64,000 nt of DNA from Streptomyces sp. NBC_00557 (GTDB taxonomy: Bacteria > Actinomycetota > Actinomycetes > Streptomycetales > Streptomycetaceae). Position 1 is the stretch's first letter. Each line of letters starts with the position of its first letter. Under the pieces are notes generated by a model. That model saw only the letters and a program-made list of their open reading frames with translations, made no database searches and was not told the origin of the DNA. The DNA lies in NCBI RefSeq assembly GCF_036345995.1, contig NZ_CP107796.1:6076001-6140000 (forward strand). The letters run 5' to 3'. This document shows, one piece after another, positions 29,359-35,270 of the stretch. The translations under genes were made by a program, and so were the position numbers.

Positions 29359-30523
29359 CGGTCGAGCGCCACAGCCGGCGGGCCGCCGTGACCGAGGCCG
29401 CGACCAGCAGGCCGTTGCGCAGCACCAGCAGCAGCACCCCGTACCCGTCGCTGACCACCACATGGCCGAAGCCGATCGGGAACTCCAGGACCGTCAGGAA
29501 GGACGCGGCCACCACCATCAGCGCGGGCGCGCCCATCCGGCTCGCCCGGTACGACACGCACACCGCGGCCAGGCCGACCAGCCACACCATGTACTGCGGG
29601 CTGATCACCCGGCTGGTGACCGTGAACAGCAGCACCGCCGTGAAGGCCGCCTCCGCGAGCGTGTGCGGCGCCCAGCGGGTCGCGCGCAGCCGCCACAGCA
29701 GCAGCCAGCCGAACCCGAGCACGGTCAGCGCCAGCGCGGCCGCGCTGACCTGCTCCACATGCGGGCCGACGAACTCGATCGACCCGTAGTTCAGCAGCAC
29801 CTGTCCCCGCCAGCCGAAGTGCCGGGCCACATGGAAGACCAGGGCGCCGAGCGACTCCACCTCGGTGCCCCGGTCCCGCTGGAAGGTCAGGAAGGCGAAG
29901 GCGCCCGGCATGGTCACCGAGAACAGCGCGGCGAGGGCCGACGCGGTCACCGCCGCCGACCACCACGCCCGCCGCCGCACGGCGCCGGCCAGCAGCAGCG
30001 CCGGCCACACCTTCAGCAGCGCGCCGAACGCCGTCAGCGCGCCCATCGCCCTCGGATGCCGGGCCCCGGCGAGCAGCGCCGCCACGGCCACCGCGGTCAC
30101 CATCACGTCGTAACGGGCGTACACCGTCGGGCCGAGCAGCGGCACGCCCGTCACCCACACCCACACACCGCGCGAGGAGCGGCCGGGGCGCCGGTGCGCG
30201 GACAGCAGCAGCACCAGGACGACCGCGTCGGCGAAGAACGCCAGCAGGAAGAAGGCGTGCTCGTACGACAGGAAGGGCAGCACGGCGGGCGACAGGACCG
30301 GGAGGGCGGCGGCCGGCGGGTACTGCCAGGTCACGTCGTCCAGCGGGAACGTGCCCTGCCGCAGCACCTCGTACCAGCCCCGGTAGGTCACCGACACGTC
30401 GGAGGTGACGTCCAGGTCCGAGAAGGCGTACACCCGGAAGACGAACAGCAGCAGCAGCGTCCGGGTCGCGGCCCAGGTCGCGAGCAGCCAGGTCAGGGAC
30501 CGCCCGGCGCCTTTGGTCTCCAC
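29288..30523 (-). CDS. GT87-type polyprenyl-phosphate mannosyltransferase-like membrane protein
   Basis: The 411-residue protein has about ten membrane helices and the GT-C signature region near residue 40 (DLDVTSDVSVTYRGW, acidic residues after helix 1), followed by QYPPAAALPVL. GT87 enzymes use polyprenyl-phosphate-mannose to extend lipomannan or related glycolipids outside the membrane. The GTG at 30523 has AAGGGG 6 nt upstream. It is divergent from a PimB'-like mannosyltransferase gene, supporting a shared mannolipid pathway, and Rv2181 (recalled) sits in the equivalent mycobacterial region. The Pro- and Arg-rich C-terminus overlaps the MATE gene by 71 nt. Confidence 0.85.
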   Translation of the reverse strand: METKGAGRSLTWLLATWAATRTLLLLFVFRVYAFSDLDVTSDVSVTYRGWYEVLRQGTFPLDDVTWQYPPAAALPVLSPAVLPFLSYEHAFFLLAFFADAVVLVLLLSAHRRPGRSSRGVWVWVTGVPLLGPTVYARYDVMVTAVAVAALLAGARHPRAMGALTAFGALLKVWPALLLAGAVRRRAWWSAAVTASALAALFSVTMPGAFAFLTFQRDRGTEVESLGALVFHVARHFGWRGQVLLNYGSIEFVGPHVEQVSAAALALTVLGFGWLLLWRLRATRWAPHTLAEAAFTAVLLFTVTSRVISPQYMVWLVGLAAVCVSYRASRMGAPALMVVAASFLTVLEFPIGFGHVVVSDGYGVLLLVLRNGLLVAASVTAARRLWRSTVTPAPAAPLPPEPARSRQAPVSP

Positions 30524-30688
30524 GTGATCCCCTTGCCGTCCGATTCCCGTGCCGATCGCTTCGGCGCCGCCTCGCGGCACCATGATGGCGTGCCCGGCTG
30601 TGGGCATGCCACAGACTCGGCCGCGGCGGACCCCGTACCGCCCGTTCGATCCCGGCCGGGCAGGGCCCGTTCGGTAGGGTCGGCGGCG

Positions 30689-31831
30689 ATGCACAAGACC
30701 CTGATCGTCACCAACGACTTCCCGCCCCGGCCGGGCGGCATCCAGGCCTTCCTGCACAACATGGCCCTCCGCCTGGACCCCGGCCGGCTGGTCGTGTACG
30801 CCTCCACCTGGAAGCGCGGCCGGGAGGGCGCCGAGGCCACCGCCGCCTTCGACGCCGAGCAGCCCTTCACCGTCGTACGCGACCGTACGACCATGCTGCT
30901 GCCGACCCCGCAGGCGACCCGGCGGGCGGTGGGGCTGCTGCGCGAGCACGGGTGCACCTCGGTCTGGTTCGGCGCCGCGGCGCCGCTCGGCCTCATGGCC
31001 CCGGCGCTGCGCAAGGCGGGCGCCGAGCGGCTGGTGGCCACCACCCACGGCCACGAGGCCGGCTGGGCCCAGCTGCCCGCCGCCCGGCAGCTGCTGCGCC
31101 GGATCGGCGAGTCCACGGACACCATCACCTATCTGGGTGAGTACACCCGGTCCCGCATCGCCGCCGCGCTCACCCCCGAGGCGGCGAGCCGCATGGTGCA
31201 GCTGCCGCCGGGGGTGGACGAGAAGACCTTCCACCCCGGCTCCGGCGGCGAGGAGATCCGCGCCCGCCTCGGCCTGACCGACCGCCCGGTGGTGGTCTGC
31301 GTCTCCCGGCTGGTCCCCCGCAAGGGCCAGGACACCCTGATCCAGGCGATGCCCCGCATCCTCGCCGCCGAGCCCGGCACCGTCCTGCTCATCGTCGGCG
31401 GCGGCCCCTACGAGCGGGACCTGCGCCGGATGGCCGCCGAGACCGGCGTCGCCGGTTCCGTCCGCTTCACCGGCGCCGTCCCCTGGTCCGAACTCCCCGC
31501 CCACTACGGCGCCGGCGACGTCTTCGCCATGCCCTGCCGGACCCGGCGCGGCGGCCTGGACGTGGAGGGCCTGGGCATCGTCTACCTGGAGGCGTCGGCG
31601 ACGGGACTGCCGGTGGTGGCGGGCGACTCGGGCGGCGCACCGGACGCCGTCCTGGACGGCGAGACGGGCTGGGTGGTCCGGGGCGGCGACCCGGCGGCGG
31701 CGGCCGACCGCATCATCCCCCTGCTCCAGGACCCCGAGCTGCGCCGCAGGATGGGACAGCGGGGCCGGCAGTGGGTGGAGGAGCGCTGGCGCTGGGACCT
31801 GCTCGCCGAGCGGCTGAGGAACGTGCTGTAG
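30689..31831 (+). CDS. GT4 glycosyltransferase, PimB'-like (phosphatidylinositol mannoside synthesis)
   Basis: Cytosolic GT-B enzyme of 380 residues. The N-terminus TNDFPPRPGGIQAFLHNMA is the acceptor side; the nucleotide-sugar site has VSRLVPRKGQDTLI and the EX7E-type region DVEGLGIVYLEASATGLPVVAG. These segments match, in my recall, the mycobacterial PimB' family that adds the second mannose to phosphatidylinositol. The ATG at 30689 is preceded by TAGGGT 20 nt upstream, so the leader is short. The gene ends at the border of a large repeat array that separates it from a convergent acyl-CoA synthetase gene. GDP-mannose as donor is inference. Confidence 0.88.
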   Translation: MHKTLIVTNDFPPRPGGIQAFLHNMALRLDPGRLVVYASTWKRGREGAEATAAFDAEQPFTVVRDRTTMLLPTPQATRRAVGLLREHGCTSVWFGAAAPLGLMAPALRKAGAERLVATTHGHEAGWAQLPAARQLLRRIGESTDTITYLGEYTRSRIAAALTPEAASRMVQLPPGVDEKTFHPGSGGEEIRARLGLTDRPVVVCVSRLVPRKGQDTLIQAMPRILAAEPGTVLLIVGGGPYERDLRRMAAETGVAGSVRFTGAVPWSELPAHYGAGDVFAMPCRTRRGGLDVEGLGIVYLEASATGLPVVAGDSGGAPDAVLDGETGWVVRGGDPAAAADRIIPLLQDPELRRRMGQRGRQWVEERWRWDLLAERLRNVL

Positions 31832-32379
31832 GGCTACGCCGGGCAGGGATTGGGCTCCGCCGGGCAGGGCGTTGGGTTTCGCCCGGCAGAGCGCGGGTTT
31901 TCGCCGGGCAGGGCGCGGAGTTCCGCCGGGCGGGGCGCCGGGCTTCGCCCGCAAGGGCGCGGGGTTCCGGGCGGGGCGCCGGGCTTCGCCCGCAAGGGCG
32001 CGGGGTTCCGCCGAGCTCCGCCTGCTGGGGTGCGAGGCTCGCTGGGCAGGGCGTCGGCCTCCGCTGGGCAGGGTGCGGGGCTTCCCGGGCAGGGCATTGG
32101 GCTCCGCCCGGTAGGGCGTTGGGTTTCGCCCGGCGGGGCGCGGGGTTCCGCCGAGCTTCGCCCGCTGGGGCGCGAGGCTCGCTGGGCAGGACGCGGGGCT
32201 TCTCCGGCCAGGGCATTGGGCTCCGCCCGGCAGGGCGCGGGTTTTCGCCGGGCAGGGCATTGGGCTCCGCCCGGCAGGGCATTGGGCTCCGCCCGGCAGG
32301 GCGCCGGGCTTCGCCCGCAAGGGCGCGGGGTTCCGCCGGGCGGGGCGCCGGGCTTTGCCCGGTAGGGCGCCGCTCTGCC
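31831..32379. repeat. Tandem array of about 24 degenerate 20-23-nt GC-rich units
   Basis: The whole gap between two convergent genes is filled by units of the type GGGCTCCGCCCGGCAGGGC plus a 3-nt tail (ATT, GCG or GCC). Variants include GGGCTTCGCCCGCAAGGGC and GGGTTTTCGCCGGGCAGGG. Many units contain GGGC-TTC-GCCC, a compact hairpin. Higher-order duplication is visible: blocks around 32006-32138 and 32139-32258 share the same succession of variants, including the distinctive CCGAGCTCCGCCTGCTGGGG/CCGAGCTTCGCCCGCTGGGG step. Unit length is not a multiple of three, so open frames through it are not proteins. There are no unique spacers, so it is not CRISPR. Confidence 0.9.
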
Positions 32380-34176
32380 CTACTTGGCGTAGAGCGCCTC
32401 GATCTCGTCCGCGTAGTCCTTGGCCACCACGTTCCGCTTCAGCTTCAGCGACGGGGTCAGGTGGCCCGACTCCTCCGTGAACTGCGACGGCAGAATGCGG
32501 AACTTCCGCACCGACTCCGCCTTCGACACCGCGGCGTTGCCGTCGTCGACCGCCGCCTGGATCGCCGCGATCAGATCCGGGTCGTCCTTCAGCGACGCCG
32601 CGGTGGAGCCGGCCGGCTTGCCGTGCTCGGTGGCCCAACGGCCCAGGAACTCCTCGTCGATGGTGACCAGCGCGCCCACGAACGGCCGCCCGTCGCCCAC
32701 CACCATGCACTCCGCGACCAGCGCGTGCGCCCGGATCCGGTCCTCGATCACCGCGGGGGCGACGTTCTTGCCGCCCGCCGTGACGATGATCTCCTTCTTC
32801 CGGCCGGTGATCCGCAGATAGCCGTCCTCGTCCAGGGTGCCGATGTCCCCGGTGTGGAACCAGCCGTCGGCCAGCGCCTCCGCGGTCGCGCCCGGGTTGT
32901 TCCAGTACTCCTTGAACAGGTGCTCGCCGTGCAGCAGCACCTCACCGTCGTCCGCTATCCGCACCACCGAACCCGGCAGCGGCTGCCCGACCGTGCCGAT
33001 CTTCTGCCGGTCCCACGGGTTGAACGCCGTCGCCGCACAGGACTCGGTCAGGCCGTAGCCCTCCAGCACCGTGAAGCCGATGCCACGGAAGAAGTGGCCG
33101 AGCCGCTCGCCCAGCGGGGCGCCGCCGGAGATGGCGTACTCGCCCCGGCCGCCGAGCACCGCGCGCAGCTTGCTGTAGACCAGCCGGTCGAACACCTTGT
33201 GCTTGAGCTTCAGGCCGAACGACGGGCCCGACGGGCTGTCCAGCGCCTTGCTGTAGGCGATCGCGGTGTCCGCCGCCTTGTCGAAGACCGCGCCCTTGCC
33301 GTCCGCCTGCGCCTTGGCGCGCGCCGAGTTGTACACCTTCTCGAAGACCCGCGGGACGCCGAGGACCAGCGTCGGCCGGAACGCGGCCAGTTCGTCGGTG
33401 AGGTTCTTGATGTCCGGGACGCAGCCCAGCTTGATCGGCGCCATCATCGGCGCGATCTGCACCAGCCGGCCGAAGACATGGGCGAGCGGCAGGAAGAGCA
33501 GCACCGAGCACTCGCCGGTACGGAACAGCGGGCGCAGCCGCTCCACGATGTTGCCGCACTCGGCGAAGAAGCTGCGGTGGGTGAGCACACAGCCCTTGGG
33601 GCGGCCGGTGGTGCCGCTCGTGTACACGATGGTGGCCGGGTCGTCGGCCTTGGCCAGCGAGCTGCGCTCCTCGACCGTCTCGTCCGACACGTCCTGCCCG
33701 AGCCGCACCAGCTCCTCCACGCCGCCGGCCTCGATCTGCCAGACGTGCTTGAGGGCGGGCAGCGACTCGCGCACCGACTCCACGGCCGCCGCGTGGCCCG
33801 CCAGCTCCACGATGCAGGCGGTGGCGCCCGAGTCGGACAGGATCCACTGCACCTGCTCGGGCGAGCTGGTCTCGTACACCGGCACGGTGACCGCGCCCGC
33901 GCTCCAGATGGCGAAGTCCAGCAGCGTCCACTCGTAGCGGGTGCGGGACATCAGGCCCACCCGGTCGCCCGGCTGCACCCCGGCCGCGACGAGGCCCTTG
34001 GCGGCGGCGTGCACCTCGGCCAGGAACGCCCGGGCCGTCACGTCCTGCCAGACACCGGCCACCTTGCGGGCGATGACGGCGACGTCGGGATGCTGCGCGG
34101 CGTTTCTGCGGACGATGTCGGTCAGATTGCCGTCCGCAGGGACCTCGTACAAAGCCGGAAGGCTGAACTCGCGCAA
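32380..34176 (-). CDS. Long-chain fatty acid-CoA ligase (FadD15-like)
   Basis: Activates fatty acids to acyl-AMP and then acyl-CoA. The 598-residue ANL-family enzyme has the P-loop TIVYTSGTTGRPKG, the A5 region EGYGLTESCAA, the ATP Asp in GWFHTGDIGTLDEDGYLRI and the C-terminal lysine region ITGRKKEIIVTAGGKN. The start is TTG at 34176 with a GAGGAG site upstream. No in-frame ATG or GTG with a better site is seen. The C-terminus is complete and ends at the repeat array. A FadD15 gene lies next to pimB' in mycobacteria (recalled), so membrane-lipid supply is plausible. Confidence 0.95.
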   Translation of the reverse strand: MREFSLPALYEVPADGNLTDIVRRNAAQHPDVAVIARKVAGVWQDVTARAFLAEVHAAAKGLVAAGVQPGDRVGLMSRTRYEWTLLDFAIWSAGAVTVPVYETSSPEQVQWILSDSGATACIVELAGHAAAVESVRESLPALKHVWQIEAGGVEELVRLGQDVSDETVEERSSLAKADDPATIVYTSGTTGRPKGCVLTHRSFFAECGNIVERLRPLFRTGECSVLLFLPLAHVFGRLVQIAPMMAPIKLGCVPDIKNLTDELAAFRPTLVLGVPRVFEKVYNSARAKAQADGKGAVFDKAADTAIAYSKALDSPSGPSFGLKLKHKVFDRLVYSKLRAVLGGRGEYAISGGAPLGERLGHFFRGIGFTVLEGYGLTESCAATAFNPWDRQKIGTVGQPLPGSVVRIADDGEVLLHGEHLFKEYWNNPGATAEALADGWFHTGDIGTLDEDGYLRITGRKKEIIVTAGGKNVAPAVIEDRIRAHALVAECMVVGDGRPFVGALVTIDEEFLGRWATEHGKPAGSTAASLKDDPDLIAAIQAAVDDGNAAVSKAESVRKFRILPSQFTEESGHLTPSLKLKRNVVAKDYADEIEALYAK

Positions 34177-34472
34177 GACTGCTGCTCCTCATAGGGCGCC
34201 GGCGCCACGACACTGTGTGATGCGACGGTGCGGTCCACGGCTCGGGCAGGTGCTCGGGAATTCAGCTGTTGAAATCCAGAGCACGACTGGACTGCCCGGA
34301 CGTTACCCGCCGGTATGGCGTCTACGACAGGGGGTTCCGCCGAGATGTTCGCTGCGTCACACGCGTGGGCGTTCCTTCGCGCACAGTAGTCCACGGCCGA
34401 ACCGACCGGCGAGTAACCGCAGGCCGGACCGACACTGTTCACGCAGATCCCACAGGCCTACGCTTGATCGCC

Positions 34473-35270
34473 ATGGCATCCACACGCCCCGGAAACCGAA
34501 GGACGCGCGTCCACGTGGTCAGCGACGTGCACGGCAACGTCCGCGACCTGGCGCGGGCCGGCGAGGGGGCCGACGCCCTGATCTGCCTGGGCGACCTGGT
34601 GCTCTTCCTCGACTACGCCGACCACTCGCGCGGCATCTTCCCGGACCTGTTCGGCAAGGAGAACGCCGACCGGATCGTCGAGCTGCGCACCGCCCGGCGG
34701 TTCGAGGAGGCGCGGGAGTTCGGCGCCCGGCTGTGGGCGGGCATCGGCGCGGACCGGGCGTCGGCCATCGAGAAGGCGGTGCGCAAGCAGTACGCCGAGC
34801 TGTTCGCCGCGTTCCCCACCCCGACGTACGCCACCTACGGCAACGTCGACATGCCGCCCCTGTGGCGGGAGTACGCCGGCCCCGGCACCACCGTCCTCGA
34901 CGGCGAGCGGGTCGAGATCGGCGGCTGGACCTTCGGCTTCGTCGGCGGCGGGCTGCGCACCCCGATGCGCACGCCGTACGAGATCGGCGACGAGGAGTAC
35001 GCGGCGAAGATCGAGGCGGTCGGCGAGGTCGACGTGCTGTGCACGCACATCCCGCCGGAGGTGCCGGAGCTGGTGTACGACACGGTCGCCCGCCGCTTCG
35101 AACGCGGCAGCCGCGCCCTGCTGGACGCCATCCGCCGCACCCGGCCCCGCTACGCGCTCTTCGGCCATGTCCACCAGCCGCTCGTGCGCCGTATGCGCAT
35201 CGGCGCGACGGAGTGCGTGAACGTCGGCCACTTCGCCGGGACGGGCCGGCCCTGGGCGCTGGAATGGTGA
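34473..35270 (+). CDS. Metallophosphoesterase (calcineurin-like)
   Basis: The 265-residue protein has the dinuclear-metal motifs in order: SDVHGN (residues 17-22), LGDLV, YGNVD, CTHIP and FGHVH. In the third motif the usual GNH[DE] is GNVD, so the general-acid His is absent and activity may be altered. The substrate (phosphoprotein, nucleotide or other phosphodiester) cannot be told. The ATG follows a TACGCT -10-like hexamer by a few nt, so the mRNA may be leaderless. In the 296-nt gap before it I see no convincing gene. Confidence 0.87.
   Translation: MASTRPGNRRTRVHVVSDVHGNVRDLARAGEGADALICLGDLVLFLDYADHSRGIFPDLFGKENADRIVELRTARRFEEAREFGARLWAGIGADRASAIEKAVRKQYAELFAAFPTPTYATYGNVDMPPLWREYAGPGTTVLDGERVEIGGWTFGFVGGGLRTPMRTPYEIGDEEYAAKIEAVGEVDVLCTHIPPEVPELVYDTVARRFERGSRALLDAIRRTRPRYALFGHVHQPLVRRMRIGATECVNVGHFAGTGRPWALEW

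What the first reader, a model, noticed from the sequence alone, without database searches (positions are those of the whole stretch)
31831..32379. Hairpin-forming minisatellite array filling a convergent intergenic region
About 24 degenerate 20-23-nt units (type GGGCTCCGCCCGGCAGGGC plus a short tail) occupy the entire gap between the pimB'-like gene and fadD, starting inside the former's stop codon. Units can fold as GGGC-TTC-GCCC hairpins, and a larger block of units is duplicated, indicating expansion by slippage or unequal exchange. The array is not coding, has no spacers, and is far bigger than any terminator here. It could act as a tandem terminator, a barrier between convergent RNAs, a structured 3' UTR, or a copy-number-variable locus.
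Basis: partly seen in the sequence, partly recalled or inferred. Interest (0 to 1): 0.75.

Follow-up and report, generated by a model that had tools for sequence, protein, structure and literature searches.

The report
Private minisatellite between two converging genes
A 540-base stretch of a Streptomyces chromosome between two genes that point at each other consists of about 24 worn copies of a 22-letter DNA unit; it is most likely a repeat that grew by copying errors in this lineage, an ordinary if tidy example of bacterial minisatellite DNA with no shown function.

Summary
The array is real. About 24 units of 19-23 nt (two of 32 nt) fill 31831-32372, practically the whole gap between a GT4 glycosyltransferase gene and a convergent acyl-CoA ligase gene. 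It is non-coding, 80% GC and built from nested duplications, one exact (41 nt). It looks private: 0 of 92 distinct gaps at the same locus in relatives hold a unit-like sequence, against 18 here. In 50 of those 92 the gap holds a cholesterol-oxidase-like gene that this genome lacks. No second array of this unit was found in the genome. The proposed per-unit hairpin is not the predicted fold of the two units folded, covaries at most weakly, and the best 50-nt stretch is within the shuffle range; U-tract terminators are at chance. Arrays with other units sit in other convergent gaps of this genome and, in three other species, in this very gap. Array frequency rises from divergent to tandem to convergent gaps, but for long arrays this did not repeat outside the first sample. 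Best reading: a lineage-specific minisatellite grown where no promoter or gene stands in the way. A new member of a known kind; function not shown. Largely ordinary.

The parts
30689..31831 (+).
   Evidence: ORF; start at 30689 chosen by me, tblastn matches in relatives begin at residue 1 for most; Pfam PF00534 151 bits, PF13439; none of the 25 NCBIfam matches shown reaches its cut-off
31831..32372 (.). Tandem array: about 24 units of 19-23 nt (two of 32 nt), consensus GGGCTTCGCCGGGCAGGGCGC, with 22/44/66-nt periodicity
31926..32010 (+). Exact tandem duplication of a 41-nt block (2.1 copies, 100%): probably the youngest growth step
31846..31969 (+). 124-nt block repeated at 32212-32335 (83%) and 32256-32379 (82%)
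31967..32082 (+). 116-nt block repeated at 32107-32222 (79%)
32380..34176 (-). Right flanking gene, convergent: AMP-binding long-chain acyl-CoA ligase (FadD type), 598 aa
   Evidence: ORF; Pfam PF00501 263 bits, PF23562; best NCBIfam match FadD11 371 bits, below its cut-off of 950

Best explanation
This is a lineage-specific, non-coding minisatellite. A short GC-rich sequence in the 3'-to-3' gap between two convergent genes was duplicated. The copies then multiplied by replication slippage or unequal recombination into about 24 units, which have since diverged. The gap tolerated the growth because it holds two gene ends and no promoter, and here it also lost (or never had) the cholesterol-oxidase-like gene that many relatives keep at this spot. 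Shown: the array, its nested duplications, its absence from the relatives measured, the absence of the oxidase gene, and arrays with other units in other convergent gaps of the same genome. Inferred: slippage or unequal exchange as the mechanism, relaxed constraint as the reason for the place, and the absence of a selected function.
For: Nested duplications of different ages, from 100% identical (41 nt) down to about 60%. Unit lengths of 19-23 nt with frame-breaking steps, so no coding constraint. Zero unit-like sequences (<=4 mismatches, both strands, whole gaps) in 92 distinct relative gaps against 18 in this one; the reversed control pattern has 1 site in each of 4 gaps. Among 391 other genomes of the genus, 178 have a match at E <= 1e-3 (only 2 first-look candidates scored per genome); the best is 75% over query bases 6-131, a look-alike array between two co-directional genes. 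In the own genome 11 of 23 sites with <=2 mismatches to the unit lie in the array, and the other 12 are scattered singles against 8 sites for the reversed control; BLAST of the array region finds only itself (40 of 271 candidates scored). Three other species have grown other tandem repeats in this same gap (L067, L074, L179; TRF scores 379, 453, 658), so the place tolerates arrays. Two other convergent-gap arrays of this genome were checked in 60 other genomes each. Where both flanks matched close together, no array match was listed: 1 genome for one array (95 nt between the flank matches), 5 for the other (95-399 nt). Two more genomes have flanks 6.2 and 2.3 kb apart. Over 1.2 Mb of own sequence without the window, gaps >=60 bp holding a TRF array (score >=80) were 3/163 divergent, 17/338 tandem and 13/104 convergent (permutation trend p 0.0002; a third of it is the sample that suggested the idea).
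Against: Folding of the whole array is more stable than shuffles (z -3.4 on +, -1.95 on -, 60 shuffles; four 130-nt parts -2.6, -3.0, -1.3, -3.6), as selected structure might give, though internal repeats alone could do this. The GGGC/GCCC pairing scores a little above shuffles (covariation 0.172 against 0.106, reached by 22 of 500). The 3'-end bias is weak. The fresh sample taken after writing the prediction gave 2/57, 6/105, 4/37 (right order, p 0.12). Arrays >=150 nt were enriched in convergent gaps only in the first own sample (5 convergent, 1 tandem, window not counted); none in the second, one tandem gap in the third, none convergent against 4 other in two further Streptomyces. Measured as share of gap bases, divergent gaps of G398 exceed convergent ones (19.2% against 9.1%, mostly one CRISPR-like stretch) and in G325 divergent exceed tandem. 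Of the 29 best look-alike hits in other species 6 were convergent, 6 tandem, 5 divergent, 11 in called genes and 1 at an edge. No population data show that the array is still changing.
Confidence: 0.76

Rival explanations
1. The array works as a two-way terminator or transcription buffer: a series of weak GC hairpins that stops both converging RNA polymerases and shields the two mRNA 3' ends.
For: Place between convergent genes with nothing else in the gap. The whole array folds more stably than shuffles. Some short gaps at this locus in relatives hold one strong inverted repeat (for example L082, L104, L073; best 50-nt energies about -45 to -57), so a terminator at this place is plausible. 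Streptomyces transcript ends include many structured ends without U-tracts (PMC8269248, passages seen). The GGGC/GCCC pairing covaries slightly above shuffles.
Against: Best local 50-nt fold in the array (-38.6 on +, -33.9 on -) is within the shuffle range (means -37.0 and -33.5; 17 and 25 of 60 shuffles as low) and ranks 12th and 23rd of 43 distinct short gaps. The two units folded alone behave like shuffles, and the alternative pairing does not exceed shuffles. One U-tract terminator-like site found, 0.5 expected. Not conserved.
Confidence: 0.16
2. The array is a DNA-level element (G-quadruplex on the G-rich + strand, or a topology sink between convergent genes).
For: + strand 46% G; 4 G4-pattern matches (loops 1-7) against a mean of 1.3 in 200 mononucleotide shuffles; G4Hunter maximum 1.76.
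Against: Weak excess, tested against a shuffle that ignores the array's own repetition; single locus, no conservation.
Confidence: 0.04
3. The array encodes a repeat protein or a C-terminal extension.
For: Several frames are open through much of it.
Against: Open frames are expected at 80% GC. Units of 19-23 nt shift the frame repeatedly. No Pfam match for the two array ORFs tested. My own codon-usage gene caller puts no gene there.
Confidence: 0.02
4. Assembly artefact.
For: Tandem repeats are prone to it.
Against: The genome stands in 2 contigs, the array is short, and its units are mostly distinguishable (22 of 24 distinct).
Confidence: 0.02

Closest known systems
Non-coding satellites/minisatellites of prokaryotes (survey PMC6749651; passages seen)
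   Same: At least 4 tandem units of 10-200 nt, unique sequence, single place, non-coding; the survey's table row for S. coelicolor reads as 38 satellites in 9.05 Mb (4.2 per Mb; [quoted passage not shown]
   Different: Units are more degenerate here than a regularity filter may accept; the word 'convergent' occurs 0 times in its main text
Intergenic stem-loop structures of bacteria (survey PMC1590033; passages seen)
   Same: Preference for convergent over divergent intergenic regions is reported there for stem-loop structures in all bacteria studied
   Different: Those are stem-loops; this is one tandem array whose unit hairpin is at most weakly supported
MIRU and other VNTR loci of mycobacteria (recalled)
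   Same: Tandem intergenic repeats, may overlap stop codons, may vary in copy number
   Different: MIRUs are longer related units found at many places of one genome; this unit was found at one place only
Intrinsic (U-tract) terminators of Streptomyces (PMC8269248; passages seen)
   Same: GC-rich stem potential at gene 3' ends
   Different: No U-tract above chance, no outstanding stem-loop

Membership tests
Prokaryotic non-coding satellite/minisatellite | At least 4 tandem units of 10-200 nt (definition in PMC6749651, passage) | tested here: met
   About 24 units of 19-23 nt
Prokaryotic non-coding satellite/minisatellite | Internal regularity by that survey's own score | not tested
   Their program was not run; TRF gives 65-73% matches between copies for the 22-, 44- and 66-nt rows
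Prokaryotic non-coding satellite/minisatellite | Non-coding | tested here: met
   Frame-breaking unit lengths, no gene called, no Pfam match for two ORFs
Variable-number tandem repeat locus | Copy number differs between strains of a species | not testable with these tools
   One genome per species held
Intrinsic terminator | Stem-loop followed by U-tract, above chance | tested here: not met
   1 found, 0.5 expected in shuffles over 31500-32700; local folds within shuffle range
REP/BIME-type dispersed palindromes | Many related copies around the genome | tested here: not met
   12 scattered single sites with <=2 mismatches against 8 for the reversed control; BLAST finds only itself (40 of 271 candidates scored)
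Structured RNA family (Rfam) | Match at gathering score | tested here: not met
   0 matches in window 30500-34500
CRISPR array | Near-identical repeats separated by unique spacers | tested here: not met
   Head-to-tail degenerate units, no spacers

The most novel reading that the evidence does not exclude
Convergent gaps of Streptomyces are nurseries of private minisatellites. Seeded at gene 3' ends, perhaps by terminator stems, by dispersed GC-rich elements or by collisions of converging RNA polymerases, arrays with a different unit at each locus, and at one locus in different species, grow until they fill the gap, and there serve as interchangeable, sequence-independent buffers between converging transcripts.
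Probability: 0.1. Interest if true: 0.55.

Novelty: new member of a known kind. Interest (0 to 1): 0.27.

Why it matters
Taken alone it shows how a bacterial intergenic gap can be replaced by tandem DNA with no trace in relatives, and it gives a candidate strain-typing marker. If the weak rise of array frequency from divergent to tandem to convergent gaps holds on whole genomes, it would link minisatellite birth in GC-rich bacteria to gene 3' ends, which can be tested directly with public genomes and Term-seq data.

Tried and rejected
Tandem terminator: best 50-nt fold within the shuffle range (17 of 60 and 25 of 60 shuffles as low on + and -) and 12th and 23rd of 43 distinct short gaps. An earlier, coarser scan at 5-nt steps gave -35.1 and -30.8 and 15th of 44 with one duplicate gap counted; one search replaces it. 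Per-unit hairpin: two registers counted. GGGC-tyc-GCCC has 79.7% of cells paired against 76.3% shuffled (32 of 500 reach it), covariation 0.172 against 0.106 (22 of 500), further pair types 5 against 3.5 (20 of 500): weak, and the tool warns that related sequences can do this. The other register has 79.5% against 80.0%.

Array behind a contig break in S. barringtoniae (L025): rejected. The glycosyltransferase contig ends inside that gene. The ligase contig runs through the oxidase gene and ends about 190 bases past the oxidase match, in sequence that by recall resembles a transposase.

Array as remnant of the oxidase gene: no tblastn hit of that protein in the window gap at E <= 1e-3, whereas 4 relative gaps hold remnants.

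General rule 'long arrays sit in convergent gaps': seen first in own sample 1. Not repeated in own samples 2 and 3 nor in genomes G325 and G005. In G398, of another family, long arrays were in 3 of 39 convergent, 4 of 91 tandem and 1 of 55 divergent gaps of >=60 bp. Only the softer ordering for arrays of any length held. Much of those data had been seen before the prediction was noted, so only own sample 3 is a fresh test (p 0.12). By share of bases the ordering fails in G325 and G398. In the 80 glycosyltransferase loci the counts were 2/126 divergent, 4/134 tandem and 9/64 convergent; they are one locus and were not pooled.

Look-alike hits in other species: mixed positions. Some of the 29 hits have no TRF array, and one (L116) is cut short so that its position is unsure. 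My first gene caller missed the left flanking gene and was replaced by a codon-usage caller; all gap classes rest on that caller, not on curated annotation.

Literature: no listed title or abstract on minisatellites in convergent gaps of Streptomyces in searches (open-licence library; listings capped, for example 20 of 358 papers, 12 of 53). Some Streptomyces genome papers mention minisatellites (listings; not read).

Full report
What is there. The window lies in a 9.02-Mb, two-contig genome. The best 80 matches to its glycosyltransferase in a collection of species genomes are Streptomyces records, apart from one titled Actinobacteria bacterium. Between the stop codon of a GT4 glycosyltransferase gene (30689-31831, +) and that of a convergent acyl-CoA ligase gene (32380-34176, -) lie 548 bases. 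Practically all of them are a tandem array: best TRF score 330, periods 22, 44 and 66. The self-match at 22 nt is 0.627; the largest in 200 dinucleotide shuffles, over offsets 10-99, is 0.431, and the best TRF score in 200 shuffles is 103. The array is 80% GC, with G 46% and C 33% on the + strand.

How it grew. Twenty-four aligned units, borders set by hand, run from 19 to 23 nt, with two of 32 nt that look like fused partial units. Larger blocks are copied: 124 nt at 82-83% identity 366 and 410 nt apart, 116 nt at 79%, and 41 nt repeated in tandem without a difference. Duplications of such different ages fit repeated slippage or unequal exchange; the mechanism itself is inferred. Unit lengths shift the reading frame repeatedly, two ORFs through the array match no Pfam family, and a codon-usage gene caller finds no gene there.

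Relatives. The other five named loci (L025, L035, L053, L066, L083) had no ligase gene on the stretch held. One search shows the two genes about 4 to 5 kb apart in two of them, a ligase match about 75 nt away in one, and separate contigs in two. The 95 gaps give 92 distinct ones besides the window. None holds a 19-mer within 4 mismatches of the unit on either strand over its whole length; the window holds 18 (reversed control: 1 site in each of 4 gaps). In 50 of 92 the gap contains a cholesterol-oxidase-like GMC oxidoreductase gene (family), in 4 a remnant of it, in 38 neither. The own genome has only one distant relative of that protein (32-56% identity in three pieces of one 660-codon frame). 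So the array stands where many relatives have a gene; whether gene loss came before the array is not known. One contig break at this place, in S. barringtoniae, turned out not to hide an array. In three relatives without the oxidase gene other tandem repeats fill much of this gap: L067 (TRF score 379, 119-nt period), L074 (453, 114 nt) and L179 (658, 128 nt), and all three contain the core of a dispersed element, not this unit.

Elsewhere. No second array of the unit was found in its own genome (candidate limits apply). Of 391 other genomes of the genus 178 have some match at E <= 1e-3, with 2 candidates scored per genome; the best is 75% over query bases 6-131 at another place. Look-alike GC-rich arrays, many with units near 18-24 nt, are therefore common in the genus but unrelated by position. 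Of the 29 best look-alike hits, 6 lay in convergent gaps, 6 in tandem, 5 in divergent, 11 in called genes and 1 at an edge.

Structure. Counting pairs over the units gives weak excess for that register (22 of 500 shuffles reach the covariation score) and none for the other. The array as a whole folds more stably than dinucleotide shuffles (z -3.4 for the + strand, -1.95 for the - strand). But its best 50-nt stretch does not stand out: -38.6 on + and -33.9 on -, equalled by 17 and 25 of 60 shuffles, and 12th and 23rd of 43 distinct short gaps. U-tract terminator-like sites are at chance and Rfam has no match. Some gaps of relatives do hold one strong inverted repeat, so termination is probably needed here, but nothing marks the array as a special device for it.

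Placement. In the first 400 kb sampled from the own genome plus the window, 6 of 8 non-coding arrays of >=150 nt lay in convergent gaps, 1 in a tandem gap and 1 at an edge, each with a different unit. This looked like a rule, so I tested it. For long arrays it failed: the second own sample had no gap with such an array, the third had one tandem gap, and genomes G325 and G005 had 0 convergent and 4 other gaps. For arrays of any length with TRF score >=80 the ordering divergent < tandem < convergent appeared in each sample: own 3/163, 17/338, 13/104 (samples 1, 2 and 3 each in that order); G325 1/56, 4/133, 1/26; G005 2/52, 9/129, 4/36; G398 2/55, 6/91, 4/39. Pooling own samples 2 and 3 with G325 and G005 gives 6/218, 25/497, 12/131 (permutation p 0.008). 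However, much of this had been seen before I wrote the prediction; the one fresh sample gives p 0.12. By share of gap bases the order is broken in G325 and G398. For two other convergent-gap arrays of this genome, searched in 60 other genomes each, no array match was listed where both flanks lay close together (1 genome for the first, 5 for the second), so arrays without counterparts recur; whether those gaps hold other arrays was not checked. A published survey reports a preference of stem-loop structures for convergent over divergent regions in bacteria (PMC1590033, passages), so a 3'-end bias of such DNA is not unexpected.

Judgement. Prokaryotic minisatellites are a known kind; a survey row for S. 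coelicolor reads as 38 satellites (PMC6749651, passages). The finding is a new member: real, non-coding, private among the relatives seen, grown in place. A function in termination or buffering is possible but has no specific support. The most interesting open thread is the placement rule, together with the repeated filling of this one gap by unrelated arrays, which needs whole annotated genomes.

Noticed in passing
L034:4644-4748 and matches; own genome for example G000:C1:6719317-6719375: A dispersed element of about 55 nt (core GGCGCGGGGAACTGCGCG) gives 22 matches in the own genome, 58 and 72 in two relatives and 13 in a fourth (first-look candidates scored were limited to 40 per genome), some of them in tandem. 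Its core lies in 26 of 93 distinct gaps at this locus, not in the window's (<=3 mismatches). Three of its sequence strings were found in no paper of the library.
   Followed up: partly
gaps of L067, L074 and L179: The same convergent gap has grown other tandem repeats in other species (TRF scores 379, 453 and 658; periods 119, 114 and 128 nt), containing the dispersed element and not this unit.
   Followed up: partly
gap between the two flanking genes in relatives (for example L026:4732-6429): A cholesterol-oxidase-like gene is present in 50 of 92 distinct relative gaps, reduced to remnants in 4 (L036, L049, L051, L181) and not detected in 38; the own genome has only a distant relative.
   Followed up: partly
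L240:3209-3481, L252:14303-14618, L246:16378-16615, L242:17170-17383, L245:464-627 (own genome): Five further non-coding arrays with other units in convergent gaps; those in L240 and L252 cover most of their gaps.
   Followed up: partly
L246:12574-12939 (own genome): A 69-nt unit repeated 5.3 times at 92% match inside a called gene: a coding repeat, unit a multiple of three.
   Followed up: no
L327:11209-15571 (genome G398): Long arrays (TRF period 183) whose consensus begins with what looks like a CRISPR repeat, judged by eye and recall.
   Followed up: no
L216, last 190 bases (genome of S. barringtoniae): The contig with ligase and oxidase genes ends in sequence that by recall resembles a transposase, so an insertion sequence may sit next to the oxidase gene there.
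   Followed up: no
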